A program made the translations under genes and the position numbers. Positions 28,078-33,068 of a DNA stretch of 64,000 bases are shown in pieces. Location of the stretch: positions 372,001 to 436,000 of the forward strand of contig JAHIXK010000011.1 of NCBI GenBank assembly GCA_018815245.1, written 5' to 3'. A model generated the notes under the pieces. It was given only the letters and a program-made list of their open reading frames with translations, was not told the origin of the DNA and ran no database searches. The DNA is from Gammaproteobacteria bacterium. Lineage in GTDB: Bacteria; Pseudomonadota; Gammaproteobacteria; Burkholderiales; Burkholderiaceae_B. The first letter of the stretch is position 1. Every line of letters starts with the position of its first letter.

Positions 28078-28148
28078 TGTAATCCTGAGGCATTGGAACC
28101 GAGTGTTGGATATCTACACTCAATGACCAATTAAACCCCAGGATTACA
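28078..28148. repeat. Nested 71-base inverted repeat
   Basis: Outer arms TGTAATCCTG (28078-28087) and CAGGATTACA (28139-28148) are perfect complements; inside them ATTGG (28092-28096) pairs with CCAAT (28127-28131), and GAGTGT (28101-28106) pairs with ACACTC (28116-28121). The nesting is collinear, so a single long interrupted hairpin or cruciform can form. No U-tract follows. It may be a short mobile or REP-like element or a 3' mRNA structure for the TRAP operon. Confidence 0.6.
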
Positions 28149-28346
28149 CCTTGCGTAGCGAGTTAACGAATCAGCGAATATCACGGTCTTCGCAACAAGT
28201 TGGCGATGCATTGCCACTTCGTCGGAAATCGAACAACGACTCCTCTCGCGTCAGCCACATCAATCGACAATTGAATTTGATCATGCAGCGCGTCACGATC
28301 ACAACCGATCAATCGCCAACAGACCTCGGAAATCAAAAAGTAAACG

Positions 28347-28767
28347 TTGTCCAGTTTGAACAAGATTGCCGCAGACGCAGAATTATGCGGTCCGGGTGTT
28401 GTTCAGAAAGTGGAGGATGAATTCGCCAGCCTGAAGTTAAGACTTTTTCCCCCATCAATTGAACTTGCAATAAGGCAGACTCAAGATTATCTTGCCAAAC
28501 TGCTGGGTAGTTATTCAGCCTACCTTGCCTTGAAAGCTTCGGAAAGCAATCCGATGGTGCATGGTATTCAGTCCCCCGTTTGGTGTGCGTGTTTCCGCGC
28601 TTCACGCCTGTATCGAATGCAACGATCTCGAAATGGCCAGATCACTTTTAAGCAAGGGATCAACACAAGACATCGCCTTCTCTTTCAACGGACGAGATTA
28701 CGATGCTGTCAATTATGCGCTGGAGCTTGGCCGTACTGAAATAGTCGCATTGCTATTGAATTTTTGA
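28347..28767 (+). pseudogene. Frameshifted ankyrin-like gene remnant
   Basis: Two reading frames join into one protein if a small duplication is removed. The first frame, from TTG 28347, reads IAADAELCGPGVVQKVEDEF to KASESNPMV; the second, from 28561, reads FSPPFGVRVSALHACIECN and then ankyrin-repeat-like helices (LEMARSLLSKG, YDAVNYALELGRTEIVALLL). At the junction ATGGTGC (28554-28560) is followed by ATGGTAT, an imperfect 7-base tandem copy; deleting seven bases restores a 137-residue frame. The gene is thus most likely inactivated by a 7-bp duplication. Some upstream coding in a third frame (28151-28350) may be older decay. Function unknown. Confidence 0.6.
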
Positions 28768-28788: not shown

Positions 28789-28863
28789 TGGTCTCTCGGG
28801 CAGGAATCGAACCTGCGTTTACCCCTTAGGAGGGGGTTGTATTATCCACTATACGACCGAGAG
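28789..28863 (-). tRNA. tRNA-Arg (anticodon CCT)
   Basis: A complete cloverleaf can be drawn on the minus strand: acceptor CTCTCGG with CCGAGAG, D-stem GTAT/ATAC, anticodon stem ACCCC/GGGGT around the loop CTCCTAA (anticodon CCT), T-arm GCAGG-TTCGATT-CCTGC, discriminator A and an encoded CCA (28789-28791). It decodes AGG codons. It lies between a decayed gene and the regulatory island, a common setting for integration, though no duplicated attachment site was found. Confidence 0.95.
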
Positions 28864-29045
28864 TCATCGCCGAGATGCAGCAAGGCGCATTTTACACCCC
28901 AACTTGAGTCTGCCTTGGGCAAATCAAGTTCCAATTTATAGATTTTGATGTGCATTAAAGTCTAAATTTACAAAAAATCAAATATTCACCAAGAGCTAAT
29001 CAAAAAATATATCGACAAATCAATCGGTTAAAAATTACGCGCTGC

Positions 29046-29061
29046 TGGCATGCAGACTGCA
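29046..29061 (+). promoter_or_regulatory. Sigma-54 (-24/-12) promoter upstream of first ECF sigma gene
   Basis: TGGCATGCAGACTGCA matches the consensus TGGCACG-N4-TTGCA at all but two positions, with GG (29047-29048) and GC (29059-29060) at the obligatory 12-base spacing. It lies 40 bases before the ECF sigma gene at 29102. The gene two positions on encodes a sigma-54 activator, which strengthens the call. Confidence 0.65.
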
Positions 29062-29101
29062 CAACGTTTGGTGTCACACACAAACAAAAAAGAGGCAGAA
29101 C

Positions 29102-29704
29102 ATGGAACAGCAGAACCTGACACAGCAACATGAAATCAGCATTCAATTCACTGATGAGGCTTCGGCACCACTGACCCCGGCCCAGCTACAAACGCTGGAA
29201 ACTTTGTTAAAGACCCAGCAATCCCGATTGACCCACTTTGTGCGCAAGCATCTGCGTCGTGAGGATTACGTCGATGATCTGATTCAGCAAACCCACATGG
29301 CGGCATTCAGAAACTGGGCCGGTTTTCGCGGAGAGTCCAAGCCCGAAACCTGGTTATTCGGCATCGCATTGAATCTTGTCAAAAACTTTCGCTACCGCGA
29401 CACCAGTTATCGTTTTCAGGACGATGATTTTGATGAGCAGATCAGCATGATCCCGGCAGATTCCTTTTGTGAACCCGAGGAATCGCTCATGCGTCAGGAA
29501 CGCATGGAGTCCTTGAAGCAAGCAATTGATCATTTGCCCTCCAAAATGCAAAACGTTGTCCAGTTGGTACTGTTGGACGGCTTTACGTACCAGGACGCCG
29601 CCATGGAGCTGGATTTGCCGATTGGCACCGTTCGTTCACGTTTGTCCAGGGCCAGAGACATGCTCCGTGTTGAGGTCATGGGACACTCTGCGTCTACGCA
29701 TTAA
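29102..29704 (+). CDS. ECF-family RNA polymerase sigma factor (copy 1)
   Basis: A 200-residue extracytoplasmic-function sigma factor. Region 2 is visible at residues about 40-100 (HFVRKHLRREDYVDDLIQQT for 2.1-2.2, and FRGESKPETWLFGIALNLVKN for 2.3-2.4), and region 4 at about 140-190 (IDHLPSKMQNVVQLVLLDGF, YQDAAMELDLPIGTVRSRLS). A 35-residue N-terminal extension precedes it. It lacks an adjacent membrane anti-sigma gene. The sigma-54 promoter at 29046 and the sigma-54 activator downstream suggest a two-step cascade like HrpS to HrpL. It is clearly paralogous to the sigma gene at 32204-32779. AGAGG precedes ATG 29102. Confidence 0.9.
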   Translation: MEQQNLTQQHEISIQFTDEASAPLTPAQLQTLETLLKTQQSRLTHFVRKHLRREDYVDDLIQQTHMAAFRNWAGFRGESKPETWLFGIALNLVKNFRYRDTSYRFQDDDFDEQISMIPADSFCEPEESLMRQERMESLKQAIDHLPSKMQNVVQLVLLDGFTYQDAAMELDLPIGTVRSRLSRARDMLRVEVMGHSASTH

Positions 29705-29816
29705 TGTTGATTCGGGATCACCTCCTGCGGTGTAACTAACCCTGAGGGGTGATTCGATCCAGGGATTCACGCTGCACAATAGTGGTTGGTTTTCAATCCT
29801 GTGCGCGGCACCCTGT

Positions 29817-31145
29817 ATGACTGAATTGACCTTGTGCATTGAATCTCAAGAATTGAGAAGTCGACTTCGAGCCGCTGCATTGCTTATGCGGGCAACCGTG
29901 TACGAGCTGTCTCTTGATGATTTGTTGGCAAAGCGGAATCTGCCAGCCCATTGGGTTTTGGTTGATCACGGACTGGATGAACTTGGCGGATTAATTCAAA
30001 GGTTCAAGGAGCAAGGACGCAAACCCGAAGCCCAGATCATTCGATTTATTGACAAACCCTGGCAAAGCTACGTTTATCATGACATCCCAATTTTTGCCTC
30101 CATCGTTCGGCCTGTAGATCCCTTGGCTGCAGTTCACATTCTTGAAAAGTTGATTGCAACCAAACCCCTCCAGTTTGGCTTGAAAGTGCCTGTAATCGAT
30201 GATTTAGGTCCTTATTCAGCAGACTTTATTCGCTCCTTACCCATGCAAAACGCGGTGTCGCAGCTTCAGTTGCTCAAGCGATTGCCTGTAGACACCGTGC
30301 TGATAGGCCCCACGGGTGCTGGCAAAGACACGGCGGCACGCTGGTTACATGCGCAGTCCGGGGTGAAGGGTGAGTTCATCCATGTAAACTGCGCTGCCCT
30401 GCCTGAGCAATTGTTTGAAGCGGAGCTGTTCGGGGTCATGGCGGGGGCCTTCACGGGGGCTCAAAAGGATCGCCCCGGTAAACTTGAGTCGGCCAACAAC
30501 GGTACGTTGTATTTGGACGAAATGGACAGCCTTCCCTTGTCTTGCCAGGCCAAACTGTTAAACGCCTTGCAATACAGGGGGGCGATCAGATTGGGGGGCA
30601 ACGTTTTTTACGAATCCAGTTTCAGGGTTATTGCCTCAACCAAGGCCAGTTTGCCTGATCTGGTTCGGCAAAATAAATTTCGTGAAGACCTGCACTTCAG
30701 GTTGAGCGTGTCTCAAGTTAGAATTCCCGCTTTGGCCGAGCGTCTTGAAGATATCATTCCACTGTATCGCCGTTTTTTGGATCAAGTCTCTGTTCAATTT
30801 GGGTTGGAAGTGCCCTCCTTAAGTGTTGAGGAATGTGATGAGCTTTTAAGCAAGCCTTGGCCTGGTAACGTACGAGAACTTCATGCATTTGCCCAACGGC
30901 ATGTGATCGGATTGGGGTCACCTTGTGACGATGCAGTTGATCTTGAGAAAGATGCGGCTGGGTTGAAGCAGAGGCTCCTTGCATTTGAAAGAGCGGTGCT
31001 TATTCAGGCACTCCAAACGCATGGTGGCTGTGCCCGTTTGGCCAGCGAAAGCCTGGGAATTCCATTGCATTCCATGTATTACAGAATGAAACGTTTCGAT
31101 CTGTTGGAGAAAGTTGTGAACTATTCTGAAAATAGAGCCACATAA
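29817..31145 (+). CDS. Sigma-54-dependent transcriptional activator
   Basis: A 442-residue AAA+ enhancer-binding protein. The central domain has Walker A GPTGAGKDTAA, the sigma-54 contact loop GAFTGAQ, Walker B GTLYLDEMD, and the arginine-finger region FREDLHFRLSVSQV. The C-terminus is a Fis-type HTH (CARLASESLGIPLHSMYYRMKRF). The first 120 residues look like a degenerate receiver: LVDHGLDELGG near residue 50 resembles the phosphorylation strand, but the later KP motif is replaced by VRPVDP, so control by phosphorylation is doubtful. It follows ECF copy 1 by 112 bases and is the likely activator of its -24/-12 promoter. Confidence 0.92.
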   Translation: MTELTLCIESQELRSRLRAAALLMRATVYELSLDDLLAKRNLPAHWVLVDHGLDELGGLIQRFKEQGRKPEAQIIRFIDKPWQSYVYHDIPIFASIVRPVDPLAAVHILEKLIATKPLQFGLKVPVIDDLGPYSADFIRSLPMQNAVSQLQLLKRLPVDTVLIGPTGAGKDTAARWLHAQSGVKGEFIHVNCAALPEQLFEAELFGVMAGAFTGAQKDRPGKLESANNGTLYLDEMDSLPLSCQAKLLNALQYRGAIRLGGNVFYESSFRVIASTKASLPDLVRQNKFREDLHFRLSVSQVRIPALAERLEDIIPLYRRFLDQVSVQFGLEVPSLSVEECDELLSKPWPGNVRELHAFAQRHVIGLGSPCDDAVDLEKDAAGLKQRLLAFERAVLIQALQTHGGCARLASESLGIPLHSMYYRMKRFDLLEKVVNYSENRAT

Positions 31146-31169
31146 AAAAAACCAATAGGCATTTTATTT

Positions 31170-31382
31170 ATGATCAATCCGAATTTCAACTCCATTCAGG
31201 CATCGGGTCTTGGCCTTGGGCAGGCAAGCGAGGCAGTTTCTCCCGTACGAAACACCTTCCAGAATATCTTGGCTCAGGTTGCCGAACGGCCGCTAAAACC
31301 TGTCGGGGTTCAACAATTTGCCGGGGTTGAGAAAAGAAGTTTGGCTTATCAGGTTCACAGCGACACCGCTGAAATGCGTTAA
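31170..31382 (+). CDS. Small hypothetical protein (70 aa)
   Basis: A 70-residue protein starting at ATG 31170, 24 bases after the activator stop and therefore probably in its transcript. It has no signal peptide or membrane segment; the N-terminus is rich in Asn, Ser, Gly and Gln (MINPNFNSIQASGLGLGQAS) and a short helix NTFQNILAQVAERP follows. Such a disordered, Ser/Asn/Gln-rich start is like that of type III secreted proteins, but the resemblance is compositional only. I do not recognise a family. Confidence 0.5.
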   Translation: MINPNFNSIQASGLGLGQASEAVSPVRNTFQNILAQVAERPLKPVGVQQFAGVEKRSLAYQVHSDTAEMR

Positions 31383-31410
31383 TTTTTCACCACTCTGATC
31401 AAGGCTTAAA

Positions 31411-31749
31411 GTGCCACTTGCCGTCCCTCAAAATTGGATTCTTGTTGATGGTTGCCCGGTTGAGGGCTTGGGTCAAGGTGAGTTGTTGCAGTCTGCCAAT
31501 GCTCCGTTTGATTTTATCGCTAAAATCGTATTAAACAGCTACGAACGTAACTGTCTTAGGGATTGGTTGGCGCATCGATGGAAATCGGCTTCTCTGAAGC
31601 AGGCTTCACTGTCTCTGCATGGAGACCTTGGCTTGGTGGTTACTTTGCATTTTAACGAGAAGAGTTTGTGTGATGCCAAAGACAGGTTTGGGGCATGGTT
31701 GTCTGCGGTGTTGCTTGATCGGGAAAGTGCGATTAATTCTCGCAAATAA
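31411..31749 (+). CDS. Hypothetical protein (112 aa)
   Basis: A cytoplasmic-looking protein of 112 residues from GTG 31411, preceded by AAGG ten bases upstream and 28 bases after the previous gene. The C-terminal half (ASLSLHGDLGLVVTLHF, then RFGAWLSAVLLDRE) has a beta-alpha pattern with LGLxVxL reminiscent of the C-terminal domain of FliK/HpaP-type length-control proteins, but this is weak and the protein is much shorter. It is the last gene of the plus-strand run and converges on the chaperone-like gene. Function unknown. Confidence 0.5.
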   Translation: MPLAVPQNWILVDGCPVEGLGQGELLQSANAPFDFIAKIVLNSYERNCLRDWLAHRWKSASLKQASLSLHGDLGLVVTLHFNEKSLCDAKDRFGAWLSAVLLDRESAINSRK

Positions 31750-31769
31750 TGTCAAAAAGTCAGGTGACA

Positions 31770-32204
31770 TTAACTGCGATCATTTTTGTGTTTGAAGTAA
31801 GTTTGTTTGTAAGCAAATGCTATTTGAACAAATGTGTTGAATTGAGACACGATTAGATTGGCGTTGTTGGTAGTAATTTCGATGCATATTCTCAGGCAAT
31901 TGTCATGATCTGAAACCGCAAGTGACACACCTTCAGGTAAGTCACTTGATACCTCGGAGAATATCGACATCGCCTTTCTTAGTTGGTCATCTTGTACCTG
32001 AAGCGACTTTCCCAAGCTGAATATTCGAGCACTAACTCTGCAGCCTGATTCAGGAATTTGTTGCAGTTCAACGGTAAAGTTTTGTTCAAAATCAATTCGA
32101 TAGCCATCTGTTTCGGCGCATTGCTCTATATCGTGAGTGCGCATTCCCAGCGACTCAAGGATTTTGTTCAATACATCATGGTGACTCTTCGACAGATCAG
32201 TCAT
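31770..32204 (-). CDS. CesT-like (type III secretion chaperone fold) protein
   Basis: A 144-residue acidic protein that fits the alpha-beta-beta-beta-alpha-beta-beta-alpha pattern of the CesT/SycE chaperone family: helix VLNKILESLGM, strands YRIDFEQNFTVELQQIPES and CRVSARIFSLGK, helix LRKAMSIFSEVSSDLP, strands VSLAVSDHD and CLRICIEI, and terminal helix NLIVSQFNTFVQIAFAYKQ. Its ATG overlaps the stop of the second ECF sigma gene by one base (TAATG), so the two are translationally coupled. In ECF operons this place is usually taken by an anti-sigma factor, which this protein might replace. The fold assignment is by pattern and needs profile confirmation. Confidence 0.6.
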   Translation of the reverse strand: MTDLSKSHHDVLNKILESLGMRTHDIEQCAETDGYRIDFEQNFTVELQQIPESGCRVSARIFSLGKSLQVQDDQLRKAMSIFSEVSSDLPEGVSLAVSDHDNCLRICIEITTNNANLIVSQFNTFVQIAFAYKQTYFKHKNDRS

Positions 32205-32779
32205 TAGTCCATGTACAAATCGTAAATTGATTTAAGTTGCGCACGCGATCTCGAAATTCTGGAGCGCACTGTGCCAATTGGAATGCCCAGAATGTCGGCG
32301 GTTTCTTGGTAAGAGTTACCGTGTTGTACAACCAGAATCAGGGTTTCACGCAGATCATTGGGTAAATTGCCAATTGCTGACTCCAGTTTGATGCTGAACT
32401 CGTTTTTCATGCAATGTTGCATGGGGTCTGAACCCTCTGCTTGCTCAAGTTCCAGGTCTTCATCGGAGGTAAAATGAAACTTGTATTGAGGGGAACGCCG
32501 AGCTGTGTTGCGAATGATGTTCAGTGCGATGCCGAACAACCAGGTGGCCCTTTTTGCATCGCCTCGAAAGCTGTCCCAGCAGCAGTAGGCCTCGATCAAG
32601 GTTTGTTGAAAAATGTCTTCCGCCGCATTTTCGTCCCGAAAGTGCTTAACGATGAAATTGCGCAGGCGTTTTTCCTGCTTCGCAACCAGTAGCTCGAATT
32701 CAGAGCGTGTGGTCTCCAGCTTTGCCCTAGAGCACCTATGTATCGCAGTAATCTTTAATTTAGGTGCAATTGTTTTCAT
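32204..32779 (-). CDS. ECF-family RNA polymerase sigma factor (copy 2)
   Basis: About 191 residues (203 if started at ATG 32815). Region 2 has RLRNFIVKHFRDENAAEDIF and FRGDAKRATWLFGIALNIIRN; region 4 has IGNLPNDLRETLILVVQHGNS and YQETADILGIPIGTVRSRIS. These match copy 1 (29102-29704) closely in FRG-K-TWLFGIALN and LPIGTVRSR, so the two are paralogues. ATG 32779 is preferred because GAAAGGCTCGAC lies just upstream. The upstream region contains the palindrome AGGTGTCACCT (32879-32889). It is coupled to the chaperone-like gene through TAATG. Confidence 0.9.
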   Translation of the reverse strand: MKTIAPKLKITAIHRCSRAKLETTRSEFELLVAKQEKRLRNFIVKHFRDENAAEDIFQQTLIEAYCCWDSFRGDAKRATWLFGIALNIIRNTARRSPQYKFHFTSDEDLELEQAEGSDPMQHCMKNEFSIKLESAIGNLPNDLRETLILVVQHGNSYQETADILGIPIGTVRSRISRSRAQLKSIYDLYMD

Positions 32780-33068
32780 GTCGAGCCTTTCTGCTTGAAA
32801 CTGCAATGGATTCATGGTTGGTCTCGGCGAATTTTAAAATAACAGCACAGGGTATCAATCTCGTCAAAAATCTGAATTAGGTGTCACCTGATAGAGGGTT
32901 TGGCCGAGTCGATTCTTTTGTTTTTTTTGGAAGTGTGCTAAACGCCAAATTAATAAAATTTGTTTTCCTGACCTTGAGTGCGGGCGCGGTAGCAGATGGT
33001 TCCAGTGTTATCCGAAATGAATTCAAATTATTGGTATCATCAAGCGGTCATTGAATTATCAGGTTGTC

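What the first reader, a model, noticed from the sequence alone, without database searches (positions are those of the whole stretch)
29046..32815. Compact sigma cascade: sigma-54 activator, two ECF sigmas and a secretion-chaperone-like protein
Seen: one sigma-54-type promoter, two paralogous ECF sigma genes, one enhancer-binding protein, two small unknown genes and a CesT-like gene within 3.8 kb, next to a tRNA. Established: in Pseudomonas syringae HrpS with sigma-54 drives the ECF sigma hrpL, which drives type III secretion. Inference: this island is a similar two-step switch, with a second ECF branch added. Which genes it controls is unknown; no secretion machinery is in the window.
Basis: partly seen in the sequence, partly recalled or inferred. 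Interest (0 to 1): 0.8.

Follow-up and report, generated by a model that had tools for sequence, protein, structure and literature searches.

The report
Unlinked switch for type III secretion
In Limnobacter bacteria, a small group of regulatory genes looks like the switch that some plant-associated bacteria use to turn on their protein-injection machine, but with an extra sigma factor and a chaperone-like protein, and kept far from the machine itself.

Summary
In detail: within 3.8 kb beside a tRNA-Arg lie a sigma-54 promoter, ECF1, an enhancer-binding protein (EBP), two small genes, and a convergent ECF2/CesT-like operon. [quoted passage not shown] The EBP is HrpS-like: its two nearest non-Limnobacter matches in 399 order genomes sit in T3SS clusters. 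All 14 Limnobacter genomes with the island have the ECF1 sigma-54 promoter and HrpL-type "hrp boxes" (GGAACY-N15/16-NCAC, with mismatches) before the small-gene pair and before ECF2. A motif built only from the 14 small-gene boxes, run over 440 other upstream windows, gives its 20 best scores to T3SS-cluster genes (score >=10: 15/206 T3SS, 0/234 others). The CesT-like protein is predicted to have the class I T3S chaperone fold. Best reading: sigma-54/EBP to ECF1 to an hrp-box regulon (T3SS, effector-like genes, ECF2). Roles of ECF2, the chaperone and the small genes are inferred. Against: box numbers genome-wide do not exceed controls, and 4 of 14 island genomes have lost or broken the T3SS yet keep the island. 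New variant of the HrpS-HrpL kind.

The parts
28993..29008 (+). Conserved putative enhancer (UAS) GAGYTAATCAAWAAAT upstream of the ECF1 promoter
   Evidence: Conserved in the 6-genome alignment; close or looser forms in the others; role as EBP site is inferred
29018..29030 (+). IHF-like site WATCAANNNNTTR between UAS and -24 element
   Evidence: Own sequence, full or near matches in most genomes; IHF consensus is recalled, binding not tested
29046..29061 (+). Sigma-54 -24/-12 promoter TGGCATGCAGACTGCA
   Evidence: 14 of 14 genomes keep GG-N10-GC, 48-70 nt before the ECF1 start; also before the ECF gene of L019
29102..29704 (+). ECF1, HrpL-like ECF sigma factor
   Evidence: Sigma70 r2/r4; tblastn hits on plasmids include the sigma gene beside sctW-sctV of P. 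antarctica, which I call HrpL by position
29817..31145 (+). EBP, HrpS-like sigma-54 activator with an extra N-terminal domain of about 135 aa
   Evidence: Sigma54_activat + Fis HTH; 43% over 304 aa to the P. antarctica HrpS-position protein; its two non-Limnobacter hits in the order lie in T3SS clusters
31117..31144 (+). hrp box TGAACT-N15-CCACATA before the 70-aa gene, inside the 3' end of EBP
   Evidence: 14 of 14 genomes, 9-11 of 11 consensus positions; inside the EBP reading frame in all 14
31170..31382 (+). S70, small protein of unknown function; candidate secreted regulator
   Evidence: No family; fast evolving, always behind the box
31411..31749 (+). S112, small protein, predicted bbb-a-bb-a fold; possibly chaperone-like
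   Evidence: AlphaFold pLDDT 78; Foldseek inconclusive
31770..32204 (-). CesT-like class I T3S chaperone-fold protein, overlapping ECF2 by one base
   Evidence: AlphaFold pLDDT 84; SicP, SycH, VecA, ExsC, CesT, InvB among the best PDB matches
32204..32815 (-). ECF2, second ECF sigma factor, most conserved protein of the island
   Evidence: Sigma70 r2/r4; 92-95% identity in 5 relatives versus 82-84% for ECF1
32975..33003 (-). hrp-type box GGAACC-N16-GCACTCA, 188 nt before ECF2, in the gap to the ParE-like gene
   Evidence: 14 of 14 genomes at 10-11 of 11 positions, N16 in 13; between ECF2 and the ParE-like start
28095..28122 (+). Further hrp-box-like site GGAACC-N15-ACACTCA, no intact gene >=100 aa downstream (not clearly part)

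Best explanation
The island is the master switch of the Limnobacter type III secretion system and works like the HrpS-HrpL cascade of group I hrp systems. The EBP (signal unknown, perhaps sensed by its N-terminal domain) with sigma-54 and probably IHF fires the ECF1 promoter. ECF1 directs RNA polymerase to hrp boxes (GGAACY-N15/16-NCAC) before the S70-S112 pair, ECF2-CesT, the sctV operon, other T3SS-cluster genes and scattered effector-like genes. ECF2 amplifies or extends the response. The chaperone-fold protein made with ECF2, and S70/S112, most likely give feedback from the secretion machine. Shown: the genes, conserved promoter sequences, T3SS presence and shared motif. Inferred: which ECF reads which box, direction of the cascade after ECF1, and every protein-protein step.
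For: T3SS in own genome: sctJ and sctC over their NCBIfam cut-offs; sctV best with the HrcV model (668 bits, cut-off 692; FlhA model 520); operons. Sigma-54 promoter before ECF1 and hrp-type box before ECF2 in 14/14; hrp box before S70 in 14/14. Motif trained only on S70 boxes: score >=10 in 15/206 T3SS-cluster windows and 0/234 others, top 20 all T3SS-cluster; 60 column-permuted motifs average 1.2 and 1.7, at most 7 each. Box before sctV in 11 of 12 genomes looked at, from perfect (G001, G005, G009) to weak. EBP is the best match of the P. antarctica HrpS-position protein among 8 own EBPs compared (E 2e-77, next 3e-58); the 2 non-Limnobacter hits in 399 order genomes are both in T3SS clusters. 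CesT-like fold. Of 23 strict boxes in 6 genomes, 5 are S70 or sctV promoters (0.0006 expected) and about 11 head effector-like genes by my reading.
Against: The strict box is not enriched in number: 23 versus 33 for the reversed control in 6 genomes; own loose form 26 versus 48 reversed and 40 with a scrambled -35. The S70 box lies inside the EBP reading frame in all 14, in one phase in 13 (encoding GN...T) and another in G009, so coding may explain part of its conservation. G014 and G020 keep the island with no second FHIPEP and no sctJ; G010 has only a truncated sctV; G017 a cluster with genes missing. The G003 T3SS is another lineage with no box before sctV, though one before a gene at the sctI position. 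P. antarctica HrpL matches ECF1 and ECF2 equally well, the tree does not place it, and the top plasmid hit of ECF1, from Azospirillum, has no T3SS gene beside it that I could see. Mann-Whitney over all windows is only p 0.056 (N15) or 0.012 (N15/16); T3SS windows are partly orthologous and cluster bounds were drawn by hand after a first ranking, so the Fisher value overstates. No expression data.
Confidence: 0.8

Rival explanations
1. Three-tier cascade with two promoter classes: sigma-54/EBP makes ECF1, ECF1 reads only the N16 box before ECF2, and ECF2 is the true HrpL counterpart that reads N15 boxes (S70, sctV, effectors).
For: ECF2 box is N16 in 13/14 while the S70 box is N15 in 14/14; ECF2 is the most conserved island protein, as expected if it reads many promoters.
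Against: Some sctV boxes are N16 (G004, G013, G010); published P. syringae hrp boxes listed in PMC3136466 Table 2 have both spacings; region 4 of the two ECFs looks alike to the eye.
Confidence: 0.35
2. The island is a general regulator (envelope or surface stress) that secondarily adopted T3SS genes; T3SS is only one client.
For: Island intact in 4/14 genomes with lost or degraded T3SS; a GGDEF-type membrane protein gene (by eye) has a box in own genome and G002.
Against: G014 has the same ECF2 as G012, which has sctV and sctJ, so its loss is recent or an assembly gap; top-scoring windows are all T3SS-cluster, though only windows in 27 held loci were ranked.
Confidence: 0.2
3. The CesT-like protein is simply an effector chaperone, not a regulator, and its place beside ECF2 is accidental.
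For: Fold is that of ordinary effector chaperones; other genes of chaperone size stand behind hrp-box-like sites elsewhere in the genome (L076, L082; no Pfam family).
Against: No effector-like gene beside it except possibly S70; one-base overlap with ECF2 and the pair seen in all 14 island genomes.
Confidence: 0.4
4. The motif match reflects the generic ECF -35 element GGAAC read by RpoE, not an HrpL-type regulon.
For: GGAAC -35 is common to many ECFs (recalled); genome-wide counts are not above control.
Against: CCAC at fixed spacing is part of the signal; 15/206 versus 0/234 and permuted-motif control.
Confidence: 0.08

Closest known systems
HrpR/HrpS-HrpL cascade of Pseudomonas syringae and relatives (ECF32; PMC5263251 and PMC8999054, passages seen)
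   Same: Sigma-54 activator drives an ECF sigma gene; hrp boxes precede T3SS operons; IHF site in the hrpL promoter; antagonists HrpV and chaperone-like HrpG in the circuit
   Different: Two ECFs; EBP has an N-terminal domain (HrpR/S lack one, PMC4145663 passage); island unlinked from the T3SS; no detectable sequence likeness to the HrpV/HrpG-position proteins of P. antarctica
Herbaspirillum seropedicae hrp cluster (PMC3093359, passages seen)
   Same: Burkholderiales; HrpL-like ECF and hrp boxes; nearest relative of a Limnobacter-assigned T3SS (PMC4224133, section 13 read)
   Different: There combined with HrpG, a group II regulator; no second ECF or ECF-chaperone operon in the passages seen
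Bordetella BtrS (ECF) with secreted regulator BspR; Pseudomonas aeruginosa ExsA-ExsC-ExsD-ExsE (PMC3372540, passages seen)
   Same: Secreted regulator, and in the Exs case a chaperone-fold protein, couple secretion to transcription; ExsC is among the fold matches
   Different: BtrS is under BvgAS; ExsA is AraC-type (recalled); likeness of S70 to ExsE or BspR was not tested

Membership tests
HrpS-HrpL (group I hrp) regulatory cascade | Sigma-54 promoter directly upstream of the ECF gene | tested here: met
   14 of 14 genomes
HrpS-HrpL (group I hrp) regulatory cascade | HrpS-family AAA+ activator with GAFTGA loop and Fis-type HTH | tested here: met
   Pfam, GAFTGA in sequence; 43% to the P. antarctica HrpS-position protein, best of 8 own EBPs compared; T3SS context of nearest homologues
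HrpS-HrpL (group I hrp) regulatory cascade | Activator without N-terminal regulatory domain, as in P. syringae HrpR/HrpS | tested here: not met
   About 135 aa precede the AAA+ domain in 10 of 10 sequences aligned, L019 included, no Pfam family; hence HrpS-like, not filed as HrpS in the strict sense
HrpS-HrpL (group I hrp) regulatory cascade | hrp boxes before T3SS operons | tested here: met
   none at sctV in G003
HrpS-HrpL (group I hrp) regulatory cascade | ECF belongs to the HrpL group (ECF32) | tested here: inconclusive
   P. antarctica HrpL matches ECF1 (39%, E 4e-25) and ECF2 (33%, E 3e-25) alike; tree long-branched; no ECF32 model at hand
HrpS-HrpL (group I hrp) regulatory cascade | HrpV/HrpG antagonist pair | tested here: inconclusive
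   No profile match of CesT-like to HrpG-position or S112 to HrpV-position protein of P. antarctica; single-sequence targets have little power
HrpS-HrpL (group I hrp) regulatory cascade | ECF binds RNA polymerase and transcribes hrp-box promoters | not testable with these tools
   Needs biochemistry
Class I type III secretion chaperone (CesT/SicP fold) | alpha-beta3-alpha-beta2-alpha fold | tested here: met
   Model pLDDT 84; all 13 PDB matches with E<=1e-3 are T3S chaperone entries
Class I type III secretion chaperone (CesT/SicP fold) | Homodimer that binds a secreted partner | not testable with these tools
Class I type III secretion chaperone (CesT/SicP fold) | Match to a chaperone sequence-family model (supporting, not defining) | tested here: not met
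   No chaperone family match in Pfam or NCBIfam at E<=1; likeness rests on the fold only

The most novel reading that the evidence does not exclude
A secretion-gated three-tier sigma cascade: sigma-54/EBP makes ECF1, ECF1 makes ECF2 together with a T3S chaperone-fold protein that holds ECF2 (or its antagonist S112) until the chaperone is occupied or freed by the secreted small protein S70. This would be an ECF sigma factor directly controlled by a type III secretion chaperone, kept in the core genome while injection machines are gained and lost.
Probability: 0.2. Interest if true: 0.8.

Novelty: new variant of a known kind. Interest (0 to 1): 0.6.

Why it matters
T3SS genes of Limnobacter have been noted in surveys (PMC2702493, PMC4557100, passages; PMC4224133, section 13), the second with doubt whether they were flagellar. 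How they are controlled was not found in print: a full-text search for Limnobacter with hrpL gave 0 papers, and of the 9 with Limnobacter and type III secretion I looked into three. The island names the likely switch, predicts its promoter motif and so lists candidate effector genes outside the T3SS cluster. It shows HrpS-HrpL logic in an unlinked, duplicated form in Burkholderiales, and makes testable how a chaperone-fold protein sits in a sigma-factor circuit.

Tried and rejected
HrpG/HrpV identity of the CesT-like protein and S112: profile comparison gave no match. S112 fold search: kinase N-lobes and T3S chaperones mix at E about 0.02, so left open. CesT-like protein in plasmids: no relative, one hit at E 0.9. 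Genome-wide count of hrp boxes as evidence: rejected, not above controls. A single-genome placement test (hrp pattern 8/26 intergenic and 6/26 with a gene start 10-100 nt downstream; scrambled -35 pattern 2/30 and 1/30, 30 of its 40 sites read) was replaced by the motif test. ECF tree: sets ECF1 and ECF2 apart, does not place HrpL. The Azospirillum B510 ECF (H1) has no T3SS gene visible among the ORFs around it (by eye). Site 28095: no intact downstream gene; its two ORFs have no match at E<=0.01 in the loci held except copies of the same place.
Full report
Observation. The window (G000:C2:372001-436000) holds what was described: tRNA-Arg(CCT) at 28789-28863, a sigma-54 element TGGCATGCAGACTGCA at 29046-29061, ECF1, EBP, a 70-aa ORF (S70), a 112-aa ORF (S112), and on the other strand ECF2 with a CesT-like gene that overlaps it by one base. 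Pfam and NCBIfam identify the ECFs and the EBP and none of the three small proteins.

Conservation. A scan of genome contigs with the EBP gave 8 loci. Five (L014-L018: three Limnobacter and two unnamed Burkholderiales genomes) have the full gene order between a TRAP-transporter-like gene and a ParE-like gene (named by eye). L019, a Burkholderiales contig, has only ECF-EBP-ParE, with a sigma-54 site TGGCACGCTTGCTGCA before the ECF gene. L020 is a Clostridia AAA+ match. L021 is a 3-kb Limnobacter contig with the end of an EBP, S112, CesT-like and part of ECF2. In 16 genus genomes the EBP occurs in 14 at E<=1e-90: 13 of 13 that are at least 90% complete and at most 5% contaminated, plus G019 (6% contaminated); the misses, G015 and G016, are 85% and 65% complete, and G016 appears from its coordinates to be the genome of L021. 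The full order was seen in all 14: the own genome, the five above (the same genomes under other handles, by their coordinates) and eight fetched afresh. S70 is too divergent for tblastn in L018, G022, G010 and G020, but an ORF starts at its place behind the box. In the five relatives ECF2 is 92-95% identical, ECF1 82-84%, EBP 76-80%, CesT-like 56-66%, S112 47-52%.

The T3SS. No secretion genes are in the window, but the genome has them: sctV-D-N-O-Q-R-S-T-U on contig 1 (about 158,659-168,198, minus strand) and sctJ, a K-position gene, sctL, sctC and further genes on contig 3 (236-14,704). sctJ and sctC exceed their NCBIfam cut-offs; sctV (668 bits, cut-off 692; FlhA 520), sctN, sctD and sctL match T3SS models below cut-off; sctU matches Pfam PF01312. 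Labels of O, Q, R, S, T and K are by eye and order. T3SS genes of Limnobacter have been reported before: a Limnobacter-assigned system as a sister of Hrp1 with H. seropedicae nearest (PMC4224133, section 13), strain MED105 in a marine survey (PMC2702493, passages), and uncertain homologues in sea-anemone isolates (PMC4557100, passage).

EBP is HrpS-like. The HrpS-position protein of an annotated P. antarctica T3SS plasmid matches the island EBP best among 8 own EBPs compared, of 13 Pfam matches. In 399 order genomes at E<=1e-75 (at most 4 candidates scored per genome) only the own genome, another Limnobacter and two others (47-48%, without the N-terminal part) match; both others lie next to sctU-type genes in T3SS clusters. 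Unlike HrpR/HrpS, which lack an N-terminal regulatory domain (PMC4145663, passage), this EBP carries about 135 extra residues with a conserved WxxYxYHD stretch and no Pfam family. I read it as a degenerate receiver-like domain; that is inference.

Promoters. The sigma-54 site precedes ECF1 in 14 of 14 genomes, with a UAS-like block and an IHF-like site upstream. The hrp box of P. syringae (GGAACY-N15/16-CCAC in most entries of a table of PMC3136466) stands before S70 in 14 of 14 (9-11 of 11 consensus positions, N15). It lies inside the end of the EBP reading frame in all 14, in one phase in 13 and in another in G009, so coding may explain part of its conservation; hrp boxes inside an upstream gene are known (PMC4544800, passage). 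A second one, N16 in 13 of 14, lies 185-197 nt before ECF2, in the gap to the ParE-like gene. Before sctV the box is perfect in G001, G005 and G009; weaker forms lie at similar distance in the own genome (-65), G002, G012, G017, G022 and, with N16, in G004, G013 and G010; G003 has none.

Motif test. A weight matrix from the 14 S70 boxes only was run over 440 upstream windows (120 nt, ORFs of at least 100 aa, 27 held loci, island windows left out, duplicates dropped). Score >=10: 15 of 206 T3SS-cluster windows, 0 of 234 others (Fisher 8.6e-6); with N16 also allowed 22 and 2; the 20 best N15 scores are all T3SS-cluster; 60 column-permuted matrices average 1.2 and 1.7, at most 7 each. Limits: orthologous windows are not independent, cluster bounds were drawn by hand after a first ranking, and the overall rank test is weak (p 0.056 for N15), as expected if few genes head operons. 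Whole-genome counts are not enriched. Placement is: of 23 strict boxes in six genomes, 5 are S70 or sctV promoters; by my reading about 11 stand before effector-like genes (own and G003 orthologues L080/L121; G002 L128, related to own L077 with a looser box; DUF4116 repeats in L132, over its cut-off, and a sub-threshold actin-fragmin-kinase match in L066); one stands before a GGDEF-type gene; about 6 lie in or near ordinary genes.

Small proteins. The CesT-like protein models as a class I T3S chaperone (pLDDT 84; all 13 PDB matches at E<=1e-3 are T3S chaperone entries), though no chaperone family model hits it. S112 models as bbb-a-bb-a (pLDDT 78), consistent with a chaperone lacking its first helix, but Foldseek ranks kinase domains equally and nothing reaches 1e-3. 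Neither resembles the P. antarctica HrpG/HrpV-position proteins by profile.

Results against a dedicated T3SS switch. Of 14 island genomes, 10 have a full-length second FHIPEP gene and sctJ with no loss of core genes seen in what I read (the own cluster is split over two contigs with an IS beside it); G014 and G020 have neither, G010 has a truncated sctV beside motB/motA-like remnants and no sctJ, and G017 has a contig with sctD cut and later genes missing. The island genes are present and uninterrupted in all four. G014 has the same ECF2 as G012, which keeps sctV and sctJ, so its loss is recent or an assembly gap. G003 has another T3SS lineage and the same island. G015, without an EBP hit, has a second FHIPEP and sctJ.

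Mechanism. I commit to: EBP/sigma-54 makes ECF1; ECF1 (with or through ECF2) fires hrp boxes of S70-S112, ECF2-CesT, T3SS and effector-like genes; CesT-like, S112 and S70 give feedback. The promoter sites rest on conserved sequence; which ECF reads which box, and the feedback, are inference. HrpS-HrpL logic is supported; strict membership fails on the activator's extra domain. Hence a new variant of a known kind.

Noticed in passing
L011 10659-11438 and L032 236-562; L052 6014-7833, L054 6344-8170, L060 12103-13880: The Limnobacter T3SS cluster carries a MotA-like (by eye)/MotB-like pair (MotB_plug over its Pfam cut-off in L054) beside the sct genes; a proton-channel-like pair in an injectisome cluster seems unusual and is unexplained.
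   Followed up: partly
L011 8839-10652 (G000:C1) and start of contig C3: An IS21-type element (by eye) lies at the cut end of the MotA-like gene in the own genome; the other half of the T3SS cluster starts at the edge of contig 3, so an IS-mediated rearrangement or assembly break splits the cluster.
   Followed up: no
L203 9745-12302 (G010) and L201 4494-10835 (G017): T3SS clusters in decay: truncated sctV beside motB/motA-like remnants, and a cluster with the middle genes missing.
   Followed up: partly
L066, L077, L080, L082, L086, L076 (own genome); L121, L122, L124, L128, L132, L137, L138, L140 (relatives): Unlinked genes behind hrp-box-like sites with effector-like or chaperone-sized proteins; five were scanned and three had no Pfam family. 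Candidate T3SS substrates.
   Followed up: partly
L075 (own) and L136 (G002): Similar GGDEF-type membrane-protein genes, each with an hrp-box-like site 27-29 nt before the start: possible link of the regulon to cyclic di-GMP.
   Followed up: no
window 28095-28767: hrp-box-like site followed by an 89-aa ORF and a short ankyrin-repeat ORF, matched in no other locus held; perhaps remains of an effector gene.
   Followed up: partly
L011 8436-8813: A short ECF-like ORF (region 4 only, by eye) with two small downstream genes beside the IS21-type element, perhaps truncated.
   Followed up: no
L056/L057 (G003, L. alexandrii): A different T3SS lineage (SctV 41% to own) occupies the same metH-adjacent place, suggesting replacement of the injectisome at one site.
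   Followed up: partly
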